A model generated the notes under the pieces. That model was not told where the DNA came from, made no database searches, and saw only the letters and a list, made by a program, of their open reading frames with translations. A stretch of DNA of 36,502 nucleotides, from IMG/VR virus record IMGVR_UViG_3300031749_000018, positions 1 through 36,502 of that record; one strand, 5' to 3'. Every line of letters begins with the position of its first letter. The stretch's first letter is position 1. The stretch is from a virus. Of this stretch, positions 17,503 to 31,094 are shown piece by piece. Position numbers and translations under genes: made by a program.

Positions 17503-17931
17503 CTATTCGGTGTACCCTGGCGCGAGGTTGGCCTCGTTGGCGTAGCGTATGAGCGCGTACAGCTGCGCCGCGCCCTGCGCGCCCGTGCCGCTCGCCGCCT
17601 GCGTGACCCGCAGTTGCACTATCCGGCCGGCGGACGCGTCGACGAACGCGGGCGCAGTGGCCATCTCTTCGCGGCGCTCGCCCGCGCCGTCGTCGGCCGT
17701 GAACGAGATGCTGGCGACGCTGGTGAGGTTGCCGCCGCCGTTGTCGGCCACGGCCACGTCGACAATGGGCAGCGTCGTCGGGCCGACGATGTCGGTCGTG
17801 ACGCGGGCCACAATCCCCAGAACGTAGCAGTCCCGGGACAGCCGGTAGGTCTTGGAGCCCGTGCTGGTCAGCGTGGTGTCCTGGCCGCCCAGCGGAACCT
17901 CCTCGACAATCTCGACAGCAGGATAGGGCAT
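17503..17931 (-). CDS. Virion protein next to the capsid gene, unknown
   Basis: The product has 142 residues from ATG 17931 (GGAAGGAGAGGACAC upstream). Its beta-rich sequence has YRLSRDCYVLGIVARVTTDI near the N-terminus and a helical C-terminus ending NLAPGYTE. It follows the major capsid gene directly and is probably a head decoration or completion protein. A 77-base gap without a gene separates it from the next gene. Confidence 0.7.
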   Translation of the reverse strand: MPYPAVEIVEEVPLGGQDTTLTSTGSKTYRLSRDCYVLGIVARVTTDIVGPTTLPIVDVAVADNGGGNLTSVASISFTADDGAGERREEMATAPAFVDASAGRIVQLRVTQAASGTGAQGAAQLYALIRYANEANLAPGYTE

Positions 17932-24515: not shown

Positions 24516-24543
24516 GGTATTCCAATACCTAATTACCTAATTA
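24516..24543. promoter_or_regulatory. Operator-like palindrome plus tandem CCTAATTA repeats
   Basis: GGTATT-CC-AATACC (24516-24529) is a perfect inverted repeat. It merges into two exact head-to-tail copies of CCTAATTA (24528-24535 and 24536-24543). This AT-rich patch stands out in GC-rich surroundings and lies upstream of the late genes, so it may bind a regulator such as the XRE protein. The function is inferred. Confidence 0.45.
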
Positions 24544-24594
24544 TCCCCTTCTACCAGCACCTGATTACCTTCGCCGCCGCCGCCACTGCCGATT

Positions 24595-25947
24595 ATGTCC
24601 CAACCGTAGTGTAAGGTTGGGCGACTCCCGGGCGTATGTTAGGCCGCAACGAGCTCCCTGTCAAGAATCACCGGCGCTGCCGGGCTGACGCACTCGGGTT
24701 CATCCAGGGCGGCTTTCAGCATCCACAGGTCCCGGTGTCCCACGATCTTGCGGAAGCGCTTCTCCGTCTCCAGCGCGGCGGCCCCGGCCCAGCGCAGCGC
24801 CATCTCCCCATCTCGCCAGCGGGTGACTCGTCCGGTCCGCCTTCCTACCCCCGACAGTAGGCTCTCGATCACATTGGTGGTGGCCAGGCATCTCCGCAGC
24901 CTCGGGGAGAGGCCCAGCCGGTTGATGGTGAAAGTCTCCTCCAGTCCCTCCCGCAGGCTGGCCGCCGCCTGGGGGTGAGATCGCTCCAGCCACTCCGCCT
25001 GCTTGCGCAGCCTGGCCATCCCTTCTTCTGGCTGCAAGCGCCATGCTGCCCGCATCGCCGCCGCCACCTGGGCCTGCATGTCCTTGGGCAGATACCCCAG
25101 CACATTGCGCCGCTTGTGCGCCAGACACCGCTGCACCGGGTTTTCCCTGCCATAGACCGCGTCAATCGCTTTGCGCAGCGCCTTGGAGCCATCAATCACA
25201 AACAGCCGCCGGCGGCCAGGTTTGACGCCCCTCTCCATCAGGTCCTCCAGCAGCCCCTTCACCACCACCGCGTTTTCCGTCGCCCCCTCAGACAGCCCCA
25301 GGACGTGCTTGCGCCCCTCGGTGTCCACTCCTACCGCGCTCACCACCTGGTGGCCCCCGAAGTCCTGGCCGTCAATGTAGATCACCAGCAAGTCCAGCTC
25401 ATCGAAGCGCCGCTCGCACAGCGCCCTCAAGGCGGCGGCGCTCGCTTCCTGGAACTGGCGACTCACCGCGTTCTTGGAGACTCCGCAGCGGTCCGCATTG
25501 CGGCATACGCCGGGATCGGCACTTCCGCCCCCTGTCCCCCGCCTCTCCTGCGCAGTCGGGGCTTGCACACCCGCACCTTCTGGCCCCCCAGCGCCACCAC
25601 CCCGCCTTGCTGCCCATGGCGCCGGATCGCACCCCCGGCTCGCCCTGGATGGGGCGGCCCCGCCACCTGCTCCGCCGACACCAACAGCACCGCCTCCAAC
25701 GCCGCCCGGCCCAGGTCCCGCACCAACCCCTCCACCGCCAGACGCCCCTGCTCGATCAACTCCACCATCGGCTGGAGCGCCTGCCCGTGCTGGGCCAGAA
25801 ACTGGCCTAGCCTCTCACTGTCCTTCTTGCTCGCAATCTGATACTCTCTTCTCACGGCGGTTCTCTCCTTTCTAGTGATTTGGTTGCCCGATTCTACCAG
25901 AACCGGGCGGAGAGAGCCGCCTCAACCTTCAACTATGAATGGGACAT
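24595..25947. mobile_element. Decayed IS256-family insertion sequence
   Basis: The element is bounded by imperfect terminal inverted repeats. The left end reads ATGTCCCAACC from 24595 inward and the right end, on the minus strand, reads ATGTCCCATTC from 25947 inward. Inward similarity continues with TAGT, AAGGTTG and CG-CTC blocks, over about 33 bases. Inside is a broken mutator-type transposase on the minus strand. No exact target duplication is certain, although both flanks contain CACTGCCG. Length is about 1.35 kb, a little short for the family, which agrees with an internal deletion. Confidence 0.8.
24639..25855 (-). pseudogene. IS256/mutator-family transposase, frameshifted and internally deleted
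   Basis: The N-terminal part (ATG 25855, MRREYQIASKKDSERL through GGQKVRVCKPRLRR to VPIPAYAAMRT) and the C-terminal part (from about 25500, CGVSKNAVSRQF through DELDLLVIYIDG, RRLFVIDGSKALR, CLATTNVIES and RVTRWRDGEM) lie in different frames. The mutator-type catalytic Asp residues are visible in YIDG and VIDG, and a later Glu in NVIES. Family members normally have some 35-40 residues between AYAAM and the GVSKNAVSR segment, including a conserved helical ST-RxY motif. Here they are missing and the frame shifts at the joint, near 25490-25500. The element should therefore be immobile on its own. Confidence 0.85.
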
Positions 25948-26039
25948 CCTCGCCACCACTGCCGCGCGGCCCCCCGAAAAACCCTGCCCTTGGCGGCCGC
26001 CCGCTACAAAAAAAATAAAAAAAAATTTTGCAAGGGGGC

Positions 26040-26925: not shown

Positions 26926-27497
26926 CCAGAGACGAGGTGCGGACGCTGTTCGCCGCCCTGCCTCGCCAGGGAGCGGTTGCGGCCCGGAACCGCGCCCTCC
27001 TGGCCCTGATGTATCGGGCCGGGCTGCGCGTGAGCGAGGTCTGCCGTCTGCGGCTGTCGGACCTCGATGCCGCCTCGCTCGCCTTGCACATCCGCAAGGG
27101 GAAGGGCGGCCGGGACCGAACCGTGTACCCTGACCTAGAGGCGTGGCGGATCCTCGGGAACTGGCTCGCCGCTCACCCTGGCGGCGAGTGGCTGTTCCCG
27201 CTGCTGCGGGCCACGCCGTGGCGGCCCAGCCTGGACAGCGATCGCCACGTGACGCCCCGGTACGTCGAGGCGCTCGTGGCCAAGCTGGCGCGGCGGGCCG
27301 GGATCCGCAAGAGGGTGACGCCCCACACCCTCCGGCACACCTTCGCGACCGAGGCCGTGAGCGAGGGAATCCCGCTCCATCAGGTGCAGCGGGACCTCGG
27401 CCACGCGCACCTCGCTACCACCGCCATCTACCTGCACGTGGCGGACAGCGAGAGAGAGGCCCGGGCCAGGACGCGCGCACCGGCCGGCATCGCCTAG
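26886..27497 (+). CDS. int: Minimal tyrosine recombinase (integrase), catalytic domain only
   Basis: The product has 203 residues from ATG 26886. The complete active site is visible: Arg48 (AGLRVSEV), Lys73 (KGKGGRDR), His147 and Arg150 (HTLRH), His173 (LGH) and Tyr182 (AIYLHV). Typical phage integrases have 300-400 residues with an arm-binding and a SAM-like core-binding domain. Here only about 15 residues precede the catalytic domain, and all residues needed for strand exchange are kept. The stop TAG shares the CTAG palindrome with the stop of the opposing methyltransferase gene. It probably integrates the phage, with help in DNA binding from elsewhere. Confidence 0.9.
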   Translation: MVATTPKRLPQPLTRDEVRTLFAALPRQGAVAARNRALLALMYRAGLRVSEVCRLRLSDLDAASLALHIRKGKGGRDRTVYPDLEAWRILGNWLAAHPGGEWLFPLLRATPWRPSLDSDRHVTPRYVEALVAKLARRAGIRKRVTPHTLRHTFATEAVSEGIPLHQVQRDLGHAHLATTAIYLHVADSEREARARTRAPAGIA

Positions 27498-28009
27498 TCG
27501 CTGGGGCAGGGGTGCAGCGCACGGGTCAGGGAGACCTGGCTCGTGCGCTCGCGTATCAGGGGGACATACTCCTCAGCCAGCTCGATGCCGATCCACCAGC
27601 GCCCCAGCTCCTCGGCGACCATGAGGGTGGTTCCGGTCCCGGCAAACGGATCGAGGACAATGGCCGGGCGCGTGGGCCATCCCTCCAGCGCCTCGGGCGG
27701 CCACCTGTCGGGCTCGACCTTGCCGGCGCCGCCGCGCGTGTCGCGCCCCACGGCCGTCGGCTCCAGCTCGAAGGCCCCGCGCCAGGCGCCGCAGCGTGAG
27801 CAGAAGGCGTCCCGGCGCTCGCCGCCCGGCGCGGCCCAGACGTGGTCGCATCCGTGGTCGCCGCCATCCAGGGGCGGCCAGACCACCTCCTGCTCGCCCG
27901 CGTAGCGCCGCAGTGACCAGTACGGCGGCGAGGTGACCGCGCACTGGACGCTCTCCGGCTCCAGCCGGCGCAGCATATCTACGCAGTGGCCAACGAGTAG
28001 CTCCCTCAT
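27494..28009 (-). CDS. DNA N4/N6-methyltransferase with large internal deletion
   Basis: The product has 171 residues. The ATG at 28009 is preferred for the CAGGAG site. Motif IV TSPPYW (26-31) and, after it, the AdoMet motif DPFAGTGTT (120-128) show a beta-class amino-methyltransferase. The segment CDHVW and FCSRCGAWRG, ending in ELEPT, matches the zinc-containing insert of common phage enzymes. In those, about 200 residues follow, with the remaining fold and target recognition (phrases such as GTLWLNLGD). Here ELEPT joins almost directly to the C-terminal AdoMet part. The frame is intact, so it is either a decayed gene or a stripped-down enzyme. Confidence 0.8.
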   Translation of the reverse strand: MRELLVGHCVDMLRRLEPESVQCAVTSPPYWSLRRYAGEQEVVWPPLDGGDHGCDHVWAAPGGERRDAFCSRCGAWRGAFELEPTAVGRDTRGGAGKVEPDRWPPEALEGWPTRPAIVLDPFAGTGTTLMVAEELGRWWIGIELAEEYVPLIRERTSQVSLTRALHPCPSD

Positions 28010-28086
28010 CTGCTCCTGCCAAACTCCCAAACGATCCGGGCCGTCGCCTCCGGGTCGTCATACCTGACGCGCCAGAGGGCGGTCGC

Positions 28087-28463
28087 GGTTCGCACGGACC
28101 TGACGGGCCTCACAGATCCAGTGGCTCGCACTAAGCTTCCGGTCCTCACGCATCCGGTGGCTCGCACTGCCATTCCGGGCCCCACGGAGACTGCGGCTCG
28201 CATGGTCCGTCCGGGCCTCATTCGCGGTGTGGCTCGCAGACAAGCCAGGCTCGCCCCGGGCCTCAACACATGAACGGCTCGCATCGGCAGCCTGGGCCTC
28301 ACTGTTCTCACGGCTCGCACTCACCTTTCGGGCTTCTGGGGTGCGGTGGCTCGCATGCAACTGCGGGTCACAAAGCCGGAGCGGCTCGCAAGTTTGCAAT
28401 GGGTCTCATCCCAGGCGCGGCTCACAAGTGCAGCACGGGCATCATGTAACGCCTGGCTCGCCG
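28087..28463 (-). repeat. TIGR-type guide RNA array: alternating 9-base repeats with 9-base spacers
   Basis: Read on the minus strand, repeat R1 (NTGCGAGCC) and repeat R2 (NTGAGGCCC) alternate, each followed by 9 variable bases, so the period is 36. There are eleven R1 copies (plus-strand starts 28087, 28123, 28159, 28195, 28231, 28276, 28312, 28348, 28383, 28419, 28455) and ten R2 copies (28105, 28141, 28177, 28213, 28258, 28294, 28330, 28365, 28401, 28437). One spacer has 8 bases and one interval has 18. Spacers are all different. The array begins two bases after the stop of the IS110/Nop5-like gene. This matches tandem interspaced guide RNA arrays, whose 36-nt RNAs carry two 9-nt guides. 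The open frames across it are by-products of the period. Confidence 0.87.
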
Positions 28464-28464
28464 C

Positions 28465-29217
28465 TCACCTCTCGATCACCGGGATGACGCCGGTGTGGCC
28501 CAGCACCTCGATCACGTACGGCAGGCGCGTCGGCAGGCCGGCCAGCTCGCGGCCCCGCTGCCAGTAGTGCGCGAGGAATACCTTGGCCACCTTCCGGCGG
28601 GCCATGCTGTCGATGTGCCCGTCCGAGAAGCGCAGCAGCGGCGTCCCGTCCCGCTTCAGCCGGGGCGGGTCCCACGGCATCGGCTCGGGGTGCAGACGCC
28701 GCAGCCGCTCCTTTTCGCCGACATAGAGCTGCCGGTACCCGTCACCGCAGCGCACAAAGCTCTCCGCCGCCTTCCAGGCCAGCACGCGCAACCGCGGGTT
28801 CCAGTTCGCTTTCTGGCCCCGCTGCCGCCTAGGGGCCAGGCCGTCGACGGTGTGCAGGCCGGCGTAGGCCCACAGCTTGGAGACGGTGTCAAACCGTGAT
28901 AGGTCTGCGGCCCAGGCGAACAGGCCGCCGGCGATGCAGGGGCCGACTCCCTTCACGTCCTTCAGCCACAGATCCCAGAGCGGCTGGCCCCTTATGCGCT
29001 GCTTCACCATGGCCCGCAGCTCGGCCTCCTGGCGCGCCAGGCGCTCATCCATCCAGTCCTGAAGGGCTTTGGCCTTGTCTGCGTCAAGGCCTTGGCGCTC
29101 CACGGCCGCCCGAATGCGGTTCTCGCACTCCAGGCGCATCTGCTGCACATCGTAGTACGCCTCCACGAGGACGCGCAGCTCTGTGCGGTCCAGAGGCGCT
29201 GGCGCTGCCTTTCTCAT
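28465..29217 (-). CDS. tas: Tas-like protein (IS110 C-terminal/Nop5-like), nuclease-free
   Basis: The product has 250 residues from ATG 29217, overlapping the previous stop (ATGA). Residues 10-75 form a long helical or coiled region. Residues 84-158 (WLKDVKGVGPCIAGGLFAW, then LSRFDTVSKLWAYAGL, then NPRLRVLAWKAAESFVR) are the helix-hairpin-helix Transposase_20 domain of IS110-family enzymes, related to the Nop domain of box C/D RNA proteins. The C-terminal part (MARRKVAKVFLAHYWQRG, YVIEVLGHTG) is the standard ending of a phage-borne group. The N-terminal DEDD/RuvC catalytic domain of IS110 is absent and no HNH is present. With the adjacent array this fits a TasA-type, RNA-guided DNA-binding protein rather than a transposase. 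Confidence 0.85.
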   Translation of the reverse strand: MRKAAPAPLDRTELRVLVEAYYDVQQMRLECENRIRAAVERQGLDADKAKALQDWMDERLARQEAELRAMVKQRIRGQPLWDLWLKDVKGVGPCIAGGLFAWAADLSRFDTVSKLWAYAGLHTVDGLAPRRQRGQKANWNPRLRVLAWKAAESFVRCGDGYRQLYVGEKERLRRLHPEPMPWDPPRLKRDGTPLLRFSDGHIDSMARRKVAKVFLAHYWQRGRELAGLPTRLPYVIEVLGHTGVIPVIER

Positions 29218-29591
29218 CGTCGCTTTCCTCCCTTCCGGGGATACTTCCCCTCCTCTACCACGTCGATAGTCTCAGCGATCCTGGCGGCCCGCTCCCGCCA
29301 CCTCTGGACTCGCTGCTGCGCCAGCGTGAGGGAGCGCCGCAGCGCCCTCAGCCGCTTGCGCTCCGCCGGGGTCGCCGGCACGACGGCGATCCGCAGCTCG
29401 ATGGTGAGCGCCCGGCGCAGCTCGGCCGGGACCTGCGCGGTCCGCAGCACCTTGCGACGCCAGCGAAGCACGATCCTTGGCGCGCACAGATTCGCCGCGG
29501 GCGCCCAGCAGTCCGGGTCCACCTGGGCTCCGGTCAGCCGGCACCGGTGGACTTCGGTCTGTTCGTCGAAAATGCGCCAGTGGCAGTACAC
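29214..29591 (-). CDS. Unknown basic protein translated ahead of the Tas-like gene
   Basis: The product has 125 residues. The GTG at 29591 follows GGGAG and the TAG of the membrane protein gene. Its N-terminal part has several Cys and His (YCHWRIFDEQTEVHRCRL, DPDCWAP, NLCAP), possibly a metal site. The C-terminal half is a basic helix or coiled coil (RAARIAETIDVVEEGKYPRKG). Its stop overlaps the Tas-like start, so the two are co-translated. It could be a partner in the same system, but no family is recognised. Confidence 0.7.
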   Translation of the reverse strand: MYCHWRIFDEQTEVHRCRLTGAQVDPDCWAPAANLCAPRIVLRWRRKVLRTAQVPAELRRALTIELRIAVVPATPAERKRLRALRRSLTLAQQRVQRWRERAARIAETIDVVEEGKYPRKGGKRR

Positions 29592-29596
29592 CGTTA

Positions 29597-30151
29597 CTAG
29601 CTCCCGCCGCCCGCGAGGATCGCCGCCAGCCAGATGATCCCGAAGACCACGGCGATTGTGATGTCAGCGGCCCGCCAGGGCGCGCACCGCCCGTCGAACT
29701 CGTGGCGCGCCGCAAACAGACGGTTGAGGTCGCGCTGCGCCCCCAGCAGGACTGCAAGCGCGAAGCCGACGCCGACCAGACAGGCGATCGGGTTCTCTGC
29801 GTGGCAGGCCACGCCACAGACGAACCAGGCCGTGAGGAAAAGCCACGGCGGCGCGACCGGGCTGAGGCCCACCTCCGACAGGCGCTTCCTCACCTCGTCG
29901 AGGACTTCCCAGATGACGACCAGCCCGTACACCGGCGCAAGCAGGCCCAGCATACGCCAGCCCGGGCGCCGGAAGCGGCCCCACACCACGCCGAGCGCCC
30001 TCATCGCCCGCCACAGCCAGAGGAACAGGTAGACGAACAGCGAGAGGATCGTCAGCAGCGCCACGCGGCCCAGCGGTTGCACCGGCCACCAGTCCGGCAC
30101 GGGCAGGTTCCCGACTAGCTCTTTCTTCGCGTCCGCAGTCTGCGTGTTCAT
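29597..30151 (-). CDS. Integral membrane protein, unknown
   Basis: The product has 184 residues from ATG 30151 with GGGAGGTGTGAGAG upstream. Five probable membrane helices are seen at about 28-47, 66-82, 102-117, 121-137 and 162-181, with a short N-terminal soluble part. No enzyme motif is visible. It lies between the DHH phosphoesterase and the Cys-rich protein. Phage early membrane proteins of this size often affect superinfection or host physiology; here that is only a possibility. Confidence 0.75.
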   Translation of the reverse strand: MNTQTADAKKELVGNLPVPDWWPVQPLGRVALLTILSLFVYLFLWLWRAMRALGVVWGRFRRPGWRMLGLLAPVYGLVVIWEVLDEVRKRLSEVGLSPVAPPWLFLTAWFVCGVACHAENPIACLVGVGFALAVLLGAQRDLNRLFAARHEFDGRCAPWRAADITIAVVFGIIWLAAILAGGGS

Positions 30152-30167
30152 CTCTCACACCTCCCGG

Positions 30168-31094
30168 TCATTGGTCCCGTAAGGCGCTCCCCTCGGCCCC
30201 GGCGTGGCCGCGCAGCAGCCTGCCCACGGCCTCCGACAGGCCGAGGGCCAGCCCCCGCCACGGCGCCCTGAAGGCAGCCGCGTGCGGGTGGCCGCCGCCG
30301 CCCATCAGCTCGGCCACGGCCCTCGCGCCCGGCCCGCGCACCCCCACGGTCACCGCCCCGCCGGCGGCGTGCGCGGTCTGGAGGGCCACCAGGGCCACCG
30401 GCGCGCCGAGCTCCTCGGCCAGCGCGCCGCCCACCTCGGACACCGAGCCGCAGGGCAGCACGCCCACGTGGACGTCGCCGGCCCCCGGCGCGCTGGCGGT
30501 CCAGAGCGAGTCCCTCGCCGCGGCCTCGCCCCGCGTCCGGTCGCGCAGCCTCATGGCCGCGCCCAGTGTGACCAGGCTGACCAGGGAGGGCTCCGCGGTC
30601 AGCCACGGCCAGCCCGGCCGCAGGATGCGCGCCACCGCCTCGGCGCCGGCTGCCGCGACGAGCGCCGACAGGGCGCGCGACGGCTCGAAGCACGGTGAGT
30701 CGGCCAGCATGTAGTCGGAGGCCTGCGCCCAGTCGGCCCAGTCGTCAAACGCGACGCACTCCAGCAGCGTGACCTCCCGGCCGTCGGCCGCGAGCTGCCG
30801 CATCACCCGGGAAATCAGCTTGGCCGAGCACAGGCCCGGCTCGTAGACGACCTGCGCCCGGACCCGGCCGCCGCGGTCGGCGTGGTGGTCGAGGATGACC
30901 GTCCCCCGGTCGGCCAGGGCGGGATGATCGTCCGGGAGGTTCAGGTCCGCGATGATGCACGGCGCGGCGTCAATCTGGCCCTCCTGCCCGTACGTCAGCC
31001 ACACCGGCTGCCGGTGGCCCAGCGCCCACAGCGCGAGCCCCGAGAAGAGCCCGTCGAGGTCGTCGGCGTGGCTGTACACCCTCATCGGCTTCAT
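30168..31094 (-). CDS. DHH/DHHA1-family phosphoesterase
   Basis: The product has 308 residues. The ATG at 31094 (GGAGGT eight bases upstream) overlaps the resolvase stop (ATGA). Metal-site motifs of the DHH family are HADDLDG (9-15), ADLN with Asp50, and LDHHAD (68-73). The C-terminal DHHA1 domain shows the substrate-binding GGGGHPHAAAF near residue 265. Relatives include RecJ, oligoribonuclease NrnA and cyclic-di-AMP phosphodiesterases. The substrate here could be short oligonucleotides left from DNA or RNA breakdown, or a cyclic nucleotide signal. The sequence does not settle this. Confidence 0.85.
   Translation of the reverse strand: MKPMRVYSHADDLDGLFSGLALWALGHRQPVWLTYGQEGQIDAAPCIIADLNLPDDHPALADRGTVILDHHADRGGRVRAQVVYEPGLCSAKLISRVMRQLAADGREVTLLECVAFDDWADWAQASDYMLADSPCFEPSRALSALVAAAGAEAVARILRPGWPWLTAEPSLVSLVTLGAAMRLRDRTRGEAAARDSLWTASAPGAGDVHVGVLPCGSVSEVGGALAEELGAPVALVALQTAHAAGGAVTVGVRGPGARAVAELMGGGGHPHAAAFRAPWRGLALGLSEAVGRLLRGHAGAEGSALRDQ

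What the first reader, a model, noticed from the sequence alone, without database searches (positions are those of the whole stretch)
28087..28463. Spacer content and irregular units of the array
In array order the A/B spacers are AGGCGTTAC/GTGCTGCAC, GCGCCTGGG/ATTGCAAAC, GCTCCGGCT/GCAGTTGC, ACCGCACCC/GAAAGGTGA, GTGAGAACA/AGGCTGCCG, GTTCATGTG/(18-base interval), ACACCGCGA/GGACGGACC, GCAGTCTCC/GGAATGGCA, ACCGGATGC/GGAAGCTTA, ACTGGATCT/GTCAGGTCC. No spacer is repeated. Unit 3 has an 8-base B spacer. Unit 6 has 18 bases that include a GGCGAGCC repeat-like piece, so the 9-base register is kept even there, as after an internal recombination. The last R1 (28087) and the first unit (R2 ATGATGCCC) are degenerate, as expected at array ends.
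Basis: seen in the sequence. Interest (0 to 1): 0.8.

Follow-up and report, generated by a model that had tools for sequence, protein, structure and literature searches.

The report
TIGR guide-RNA array beside tasA
A phage carries a known type of RNA-guide cassette (a TIGR-Tas system without a nuclease), and comparison with a near-identical sister phage shows that its guide list is almost completely rewritten while the rest of the genome stays about 90% the same.

Summary
On the minus strand, 28462-28086, two 9-nt repeats (edge TGCGAGCCR, loop TGAGRCCCR) alternate with 9-nt spacers in ten units. The array starts 2 nt after the stop codon of a 250-aa gene (29217-28465). This gene matches NCBIfam 'TIGR-Tas' (195 bits, cutoff 100) and the solved TasR and TasH structures, but has no nuclease domain. 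It is therefore a TIGR-TasA locus: a known kind (Faure et al. 2025) and a new member.

A colinear sister phage (about 87-93% nucleotide identity over most of the genome) keeps tasA (92% aa), yet only two or three of its 12 units are homologous, and their spacers have changed. Across three sister-phage pairs, shared units keep their order and unique units pile up at the tas-proximal end (P about 0.002; 0.014 conservatively). A and B spacers can also be re-paired separately. Unit 6 and the 8-nt spacer fit such recombination.

I found no convincing target: no self-match, no excess over decoys, only chance-level database hits. The guide-array reading is very secure. The biological role is inferred, most likely cleavage-free interference with other DNA.

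The parts
28465..29217 (-). tasA: 250-aa Nop-domain (TIGR-Tas family) protein without a nuclease domain
   Evidence: NCBIfam NF052498 195 bits vs cutoff 100; PF02371; PDB TasR 9mty E 8.5e-37 and TasH E 2.9e-20 by sequence; AlphaFold model pLDDT 82.5 best matched by TasR/TasH
28086..28462 (-). TIGR dual-repeat array, 10 units, from first edge repeat (GGCGAGCCA, 28462-28454) to last degenerate edge repeat (TGCGAACCG, 28094-28086)
28427..28462 (-). unit 1: edge GGCGAGCCA, A GGCGTTACA, loop TGATGCCCG, B TGCTGCACT (degenerate first unit)
28391..28426 (-). unit 2: A CGCCTGGGA, B TTGCAAACT
28356..28390 (-). unit 3 (35 nt): A CTCCGGCTT, B CAGTTGCA (8 nt)
28320..28355 (-). unit 4: A CCGCACCCC, B AAAGGTGAG
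28284..28319 (-). unit 5: A TGAGAACAG, B GGCTGCCGA; homologous to sister unit 3 (same A, B differs at positions 4-5)
28239..28283 (-). unit 6 (45 nt, irregular): A TTCATGTGT, loop TGAGGCCCG, then 18 nt GGGCGAGCCTGGCTTGTC containing an edge-repeat-like GGCGAGCC
28203..28238 (-). unit 7: A CACCGCGAA, B GACGGACCA
28167..28202 (-). unit 8: A CAGTCTCCG, B GAATGGCAG (possible diverged homolog of sister unit 11, 12/18)
28131..28166 (-). unit 9: A CCGGATGCG, B GAAGCTTAG
28095..28130 (-). unit 10 (last): A CTGGATCTG, B TCAGGTCCG; diverged homolog of the sister's last unit (13/18, null P 2.5e-4)
27494..28030 (-). gene after the array: reading frame with DNA methyltransferase matches at both ends; the same-strand order suggests cotranscription (inferred)

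Best explanation
The stretch is the guide array of a TIGR-TasA system carried by a tailed phage. Shown here: the two-repeat/two-spacer architecture, an adjacent Nop-domain Tas protein without a nuclease, conserved box-like ends (TG start, CCR end) in both repeats, and very fast turnover of spacers between sister phages. Inferred from Faure et al. 2025: the array is transcribed with tasA on the minus strand and cut, with Tas bound, into about 36-nt tigRNAs. A TasA dimer plus one tigRNA then binds an 18-bp DNA site of the form 5'-spacer A-(0 to 2 bp)-reverse complement of spacer B-3'. Without a nuclease the complex would bend or block the DNA rather than cut it, most likely to silence or hinder rival mobile elements, or host genes, during infection. 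Inferred from the comparison: the array changes by gain of units near tasA, loss, point change and recombination between short repeats that can re-pair A and B spacers; unit 6 and the 8-nt spacer in unit 3 are scars of this process.
For: Tas identity. Array architecture and register. Same architecture beside tas genes of relatives at 92, 63, 57, 39 and 37% identity, and in many contigs found by repeat pattern alone. Sister phage colinear at about 87-93% nucleotide identity over most of the genome; unit turnover and shared units. Separate inheritance of A and B: L017/L018 share A CATTGACGG with different B; L019 uses A TGGTTGAGA with two B; L005 reuses A and B in three combinations. Targeting geometry, processing and TasA role: Faure et al. 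(PMC12045711).
Against: No target was found for any unit of this array, so the function is inferred. There is no rho-independent terminator after the array and no sigma-70-like promoter before it, although the phage is GC-rich and the genes lie in one direction. The array RNA folds no better than shuffles, which is neutral. Two shared units have diverged by 28-33% in the spacers, which could also mean that old units decay without selection.
Confidence: 0.88

Rival explanations
1. The array is a genuine TIGR array, but its guides serve phage-internal regulation (binding the phage's own genes), not other DNA.
For: TasA has no nuclease, so self-binding would be harmless; the locus sits next to replication-type genes (DnaB/primase, RecT, DHH).
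Against: No natural spacer pair matches its own genome or the sister genome with fewer than 3 mismatches, while mixed-up pairs occasionally do; over 183 units and about 660 kb natural pairs show no excess over mixed pairs once pre-selected hits are set aside. Fast turnover is not expected for guides to own conserved genes.
Confidence: 0.08
2. The array is a decaying remnant: tasA is kept, but the guides are mostly drifting and no longer matter.
For: Degenerate loops and edges, an 8-nt spacer and an irregular unit 6; spacers of shared units changed at 17 of 144 positions against 9 of 144 in repeats.
Against: Repeats remain highly conserved at the box positions in both sisters; the sister has 12 well-formed units, almost all different, so the array is being renewed, not just eroded.
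Confidence: 0.1
3. It is part of an IS110-type transposon: the protein is a transposase fragment and the repeats are bridge-RNA or end sequences.
For: Transposase_20 (PF02371) and the label 'transposase' in PHROGs.
Against: IS110 equivalog model 36 bits, cutoff 140, whereas TIGR-Tas 195 bits, cutoff 100; no N-terminal catalytic domain; best fold matches are TasR and TasH, IS621 ranks lower; ten tandem variable guides are not an IS110 feature.
Confidence: 0.01
4. It is a repeat-protein gene (12-residue repeats) rather than an RNA array.
For: Open frames of 104 and 113 codons cross part of the array.
Against: 8-nt and 18-nt spacers; spacers are unrelated in a 92%-identical sister locus; no family match for these frames; the same array type occurs beside tas genes in many other contigs.
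Confidence: 0.01

Closest known systems
TIGR-TasA dual-repeat systems (Faure et al., Science 2025, PMC12045711), e.g. Flavonifractor plautii FpTIGR
   Same: Solo Nop-domain Tas protein, adjacent array of alternating edge and loop repeats with 9-nt spacers, truncated or degenerate ends, mostly in phages
   Different: No rho-independent terminator seen; repeat ends CCR instead of a strict CCA; unit 6 irregular; expression and processing not tested
Salicola phage CGphi29 TasH system (SpTIGR)
   Same: Homologous Tas core (31.5% identity) and downstream dual-repeat array
   Different: TasH has an N-terminal HNH nuclease and different repeats (AGCGAGCCA/AGACAACCA)
TasR (PDB 9mty)
   Same: Best structural and sequence match for the Nop part
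   Different: TasR carries a RuvC nuclease that this protein lacks
IS110/IS621 transposases with bridge RNA
   Same: Shared RNA-binding Nop-like domain (PF02371)
   Different: No catalytic domain, scores far below the IS110 model cutoff, guide array instead of one bridge RNA

Membership tests
TIGR-Tas | Nop-domain Tas protein encoded next to the array | tested here: met
   NCBIfam NF052498 195 bits vs cutoff 100; TasR/TasH matches
TIGR-Tas | Two alternating 8-12-nt repeats separated by about 9-nt variable spacers | tested here: met
   Ten units, 9+9+9+9 register
TIGR-Tas | Box motifs (UG start, CCA-like end) shared by edge and loop repeats | tested here: met
   TG..CCR in both repeats; column information; relatives have TGCGAGCCA/TGAGAACCA
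TIGR-Tas | Truncated or degenerate edge repeats at both array ends | tested here: met
   GGCGAGCCA first, TGCGAACCG last
TIGR-Tas | Predicted rho-independent terminator after the array (typical, not defining) | tested here: not met
   None found in 27500-30200
TIGR-Tas | Processing to 36-nt tigRNAs bound by Tas | not testable with these tools
   Needs RNA sequencing
TIGR-Tas | Tandem-spacer recognition of both strands of an 18-bp DNA target | tested here: inconclusive
   No target found above decoy level
TasA subtype | Solo Nop domain, no HNH or RuvC | tested here: met
   250 aa, coiled-coil helix starts at residue 11, no nuclease family match
TasA-TasParB operons | ParB-like gene in the operon | tested here: not met
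   No ParB match in the genes upstream
IS110 transposon | DEDD catalytic domain and full IS110 model match | tested here: not met
   36 bits vs cutoff 140
CRISPR-Cas | 25-36-nt single repeat type | tested here: not met
   Two alternating 9-nt repeats; cas genes were not searched for specifically

The most novel reading that the evidence does not exclude
TIGR arrays are actively renewed with a polarity: new or exchanged units appear near the tas gene, old units persist at the far end, and recombination between the 9-nt repeats re-pairs A and B spacers. This would be a first, comparative answer to how TIGR arrays evolve without any adaptation genes.
Probability: 0.4. Interest if true: 0.75.

Novelty: new member of a known kind. 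Interest (0 to 1): 0.52.

Why it matters
How TIGR arrays arise, what they target and what nuclease-free TasA does are named as open questions by the discoverers (PMC12045711). Sister phages that share most of their genomes at about 87-93% identity but have almost wholly different arrays show that spacer content changes much faster than the genome around it, in keeping with a role against changing opponents. They also give a concrete comparative handle on array growth. If the polarity and A/B re-pairing hold in larger sets, array evolution becomes testable by sequence comparison alone.

Tried and rejected
Own-genome 16-nt match of unit 3 (17603-17618): 16% of random 377-nt segments have one as long, so chance.

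Conserved-target scan for unit 5 / sister unit 3 in IMG/VR: one AT-rich contig, chance.

Unit 10 target in IMG/VR: four hits, three of them one identical prophage. Decoy pairs gave 12 and 0 hits, so counts are uninformative.

The unit shared by L017/L018 matches exactly a codon-conserved motif (GNTTLE) of the Phage_capsid_3 major capsid gene in five homologous contigs. Attractive, but no other spacer of those arrays hits these phages above chance and decoys give similar counts, so it stays a lead only.

Phage-collection search with unit targets (gap 0): none for units 1, 2, 4 and 5; unit 9 has 17/18 in Cutibacterium phage endolysin genes, expected by chance at this database size.

L047 unit 13 matches the IKGIG codons of another tas gene exactly; its own tas is not matched and its genome has a 1-mismatch match in an unrelated host gene; treated as chance.

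Rfam: no match. Array RNA structure: no excess stability. First genome-contig scan for tasA relatives: none.

Full report
WHAT IS THERE. On the minus strand, directly after a 250-codon gene, lie ten units of edge repeat (TGCGAGCCR), 9-nt spacer A, loop repeat (TGAGRCCCR), 9-nt spacer B. The edge-A-loop pattern is absent in shuffled windows at this density (13 matches, 10 of them in the array; shuffles mean 1.45, largest 5). Column information over 18 units from this array and its sister shows the repeats as positions 1-9 and 19-27, starting TG and ending CCR; positions 10-18 and 28-36 carry little information. The inserted GGCGAGCC in unit 6 is identical to the array's own first edge repeat, which fits recombination inside the array; no donor unit was identified.

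THE PROTEIN. The gene at 29217-28465 matches NCBIfam NF052498 (TIGR-Tas) with 195 bits (cutoff 100) and the IS110 model with only 36 (cutoff 140). By sequence it finds TasR (9mty, E 8.5e-37) and TasH (E 2.9e-20) among solved structures. A predicted structure (pLDDT 82.5) is closest to TasR and TasH and then IS621. It has no HNH or RuvC part, so it is TasA. The PHROG label 'transposase' is an inherited name.

RELATIVES. tblastn-type scans gave tas relatives with arrays in IMG/VR at 92% (L003), 63% (L004), 57% (L017, L018), 39% (L005) and 37% (L019, L020) identity, and in isolated phages: Salicola CGphi29 (the TasH example of Faure et al.), Microcystis Mvi-JY20 and 76 mycobacteriophages. A scan for the repeat pattern alone found further arrays, most with tas genes, including 20- and 29-unit arrays and three in archaeal or bacterial assemblies. 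Three other pattern hits (L045, L046, L048) are plain 9-nt tandem repeats without tas and are false positives.

ARRAY EVOLUTION. The phage of L003 (G001) is a colinear, circularly permuted sister: about 87-93% nucleotide identity over most of the 36.5 kb. Its array has 12 full units against 10 here. Homologous units: unit 5/sister 3 (same A, B differs at positions 4-5), unit 10/sister 12 (both last; 13 of 18 spacer bases; null P 2.5e-4), and possibly unit 8/sister 11 (12 of 18). Everything else is unrelated. In two other sister pairs (L017/L018, L019/L020) shared units are also colinear. Counting unique units before the first and after the last shared unit over the three pairs gives an excess of 27 at the tas-proximal side (P 0.002; 0.014 if one array per pair is used). 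L017/L018 share spacer A CATTGACGG with different B; L019 uses A TGGTTGAGA with two B; L005 shows three overlapping A/B combinations. So recombination at the short repeats can re-pair A and B. In shared units, spacers changed at 17 of 144 positions and repeats at 9 of 144. This is a small sample and the polarity test was devised after seeing the data.

TARGETS. Faure et al. report 8-nt 3' overhangs and a 'C-5' cut rule. My arithmetic from these gives the target as A-(0 to 2)-rc(B) on one strand. With this geometry no unit matches its own or the sister genome with fewer than 3 mismatches. Over 103 and then 183 units against 378 and 661 kb, natural pairs do not exceed mixed pairs, apart from hits that had been pre-selected by exact scans. 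Exact scans of IMG/VR gave 1, 4 and 7 hits for natural pairs and 12 and 0 for decoys. The capsid-motif hit is the most suggestive single lead but is not significant. The phage collection gave no exact target for the eight units searched.

MECHANISM. Shown: architecture, protein family, absence of a nuclease, rapid turnover. Inferred from the published system: cotranscription with tasA, processing to tigRNAs, two-strand DNA binding with strong bending. Inferred only: that the purpose is to silence or hinder other DNA. Fast turnover and lack of self-matches fit this; lack of known targets leaves it open.

VERDICT. A new member of a known kind, TIGR-TasA, very secure. The new information is comparative: near-complete guide replacement between sister phages, a tas-proximal bias of change, and re-pairing of half-guides.

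Noticed in passing
L008 2143-2482; L060-L063 upstream of the tas gene: Cluster-A mycobacteriophages (Ohno789, Euphoria, Barriga, Froghopper, Chanagan; 76 mycobacteriophage records match) carry about five hairpins upstream of a gene annotated 'transposase' or hypothetical. Stems are conserved; 9-nt A and B segments between CCA-like and CG motifs vary between phages. This looks like a stem-loop TIGR array in phages that grow on a laboratory host. Faure et al. cite mycobacteriophages, so it may already be in their tables.
   Followed up: partly
L061 hairpin 1; L099 901-916: Barriga hairpin-1 target (AAACCCTCG|GGGCGGTGC) matches 16 of 18 bases, mismatched only at the outer edge, at the end of gene 36 of Fishburne and, by the search tally, probably many further mycobacteriophages. 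Chanagan's hairpin 1 keeps the same core. Chance not excluded.
   Followed up: partly
L053, L056-L059: The spacer pair conserved in sister arrays L017/L018 equals a codon-conserved motif (GNTTLE) of the Phage_capsid_3 major capsid gene in five homologous contigs.
   Followed up: partly
L019 2790-3474 and L020 10772-11200: Of the five units shared by this sister pair, four have loops that depart strongly from the loop consensus; canonical units mostly turn over.
   Followed up: no
L040/L041 (one 104-kb phage contig) and L035: A large phage with two separate TIGR arrays (about 13 and 20 units), and a phage with a 29-unit array of 9-11-nt spacers.
   Followed up: no
L036 4539-5220 (IMGVR 642979336, 33.5-kb contig): About 18-unit TIGR array with a tas gene; the record name suggests an isolate genome, so its host might allow target search.
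   Followed up: no
window 24639-25568: Mutator-family transposase in a segment (24536-26018) that has no match in the sister phage, possibly a recent insertion.
   Followed up: no
PHROG 4285: The PHROG family named 'transposase' that covers this protein appears to be a Tas family; phage annotations using it hide TIGR loci.
   Followed up: no
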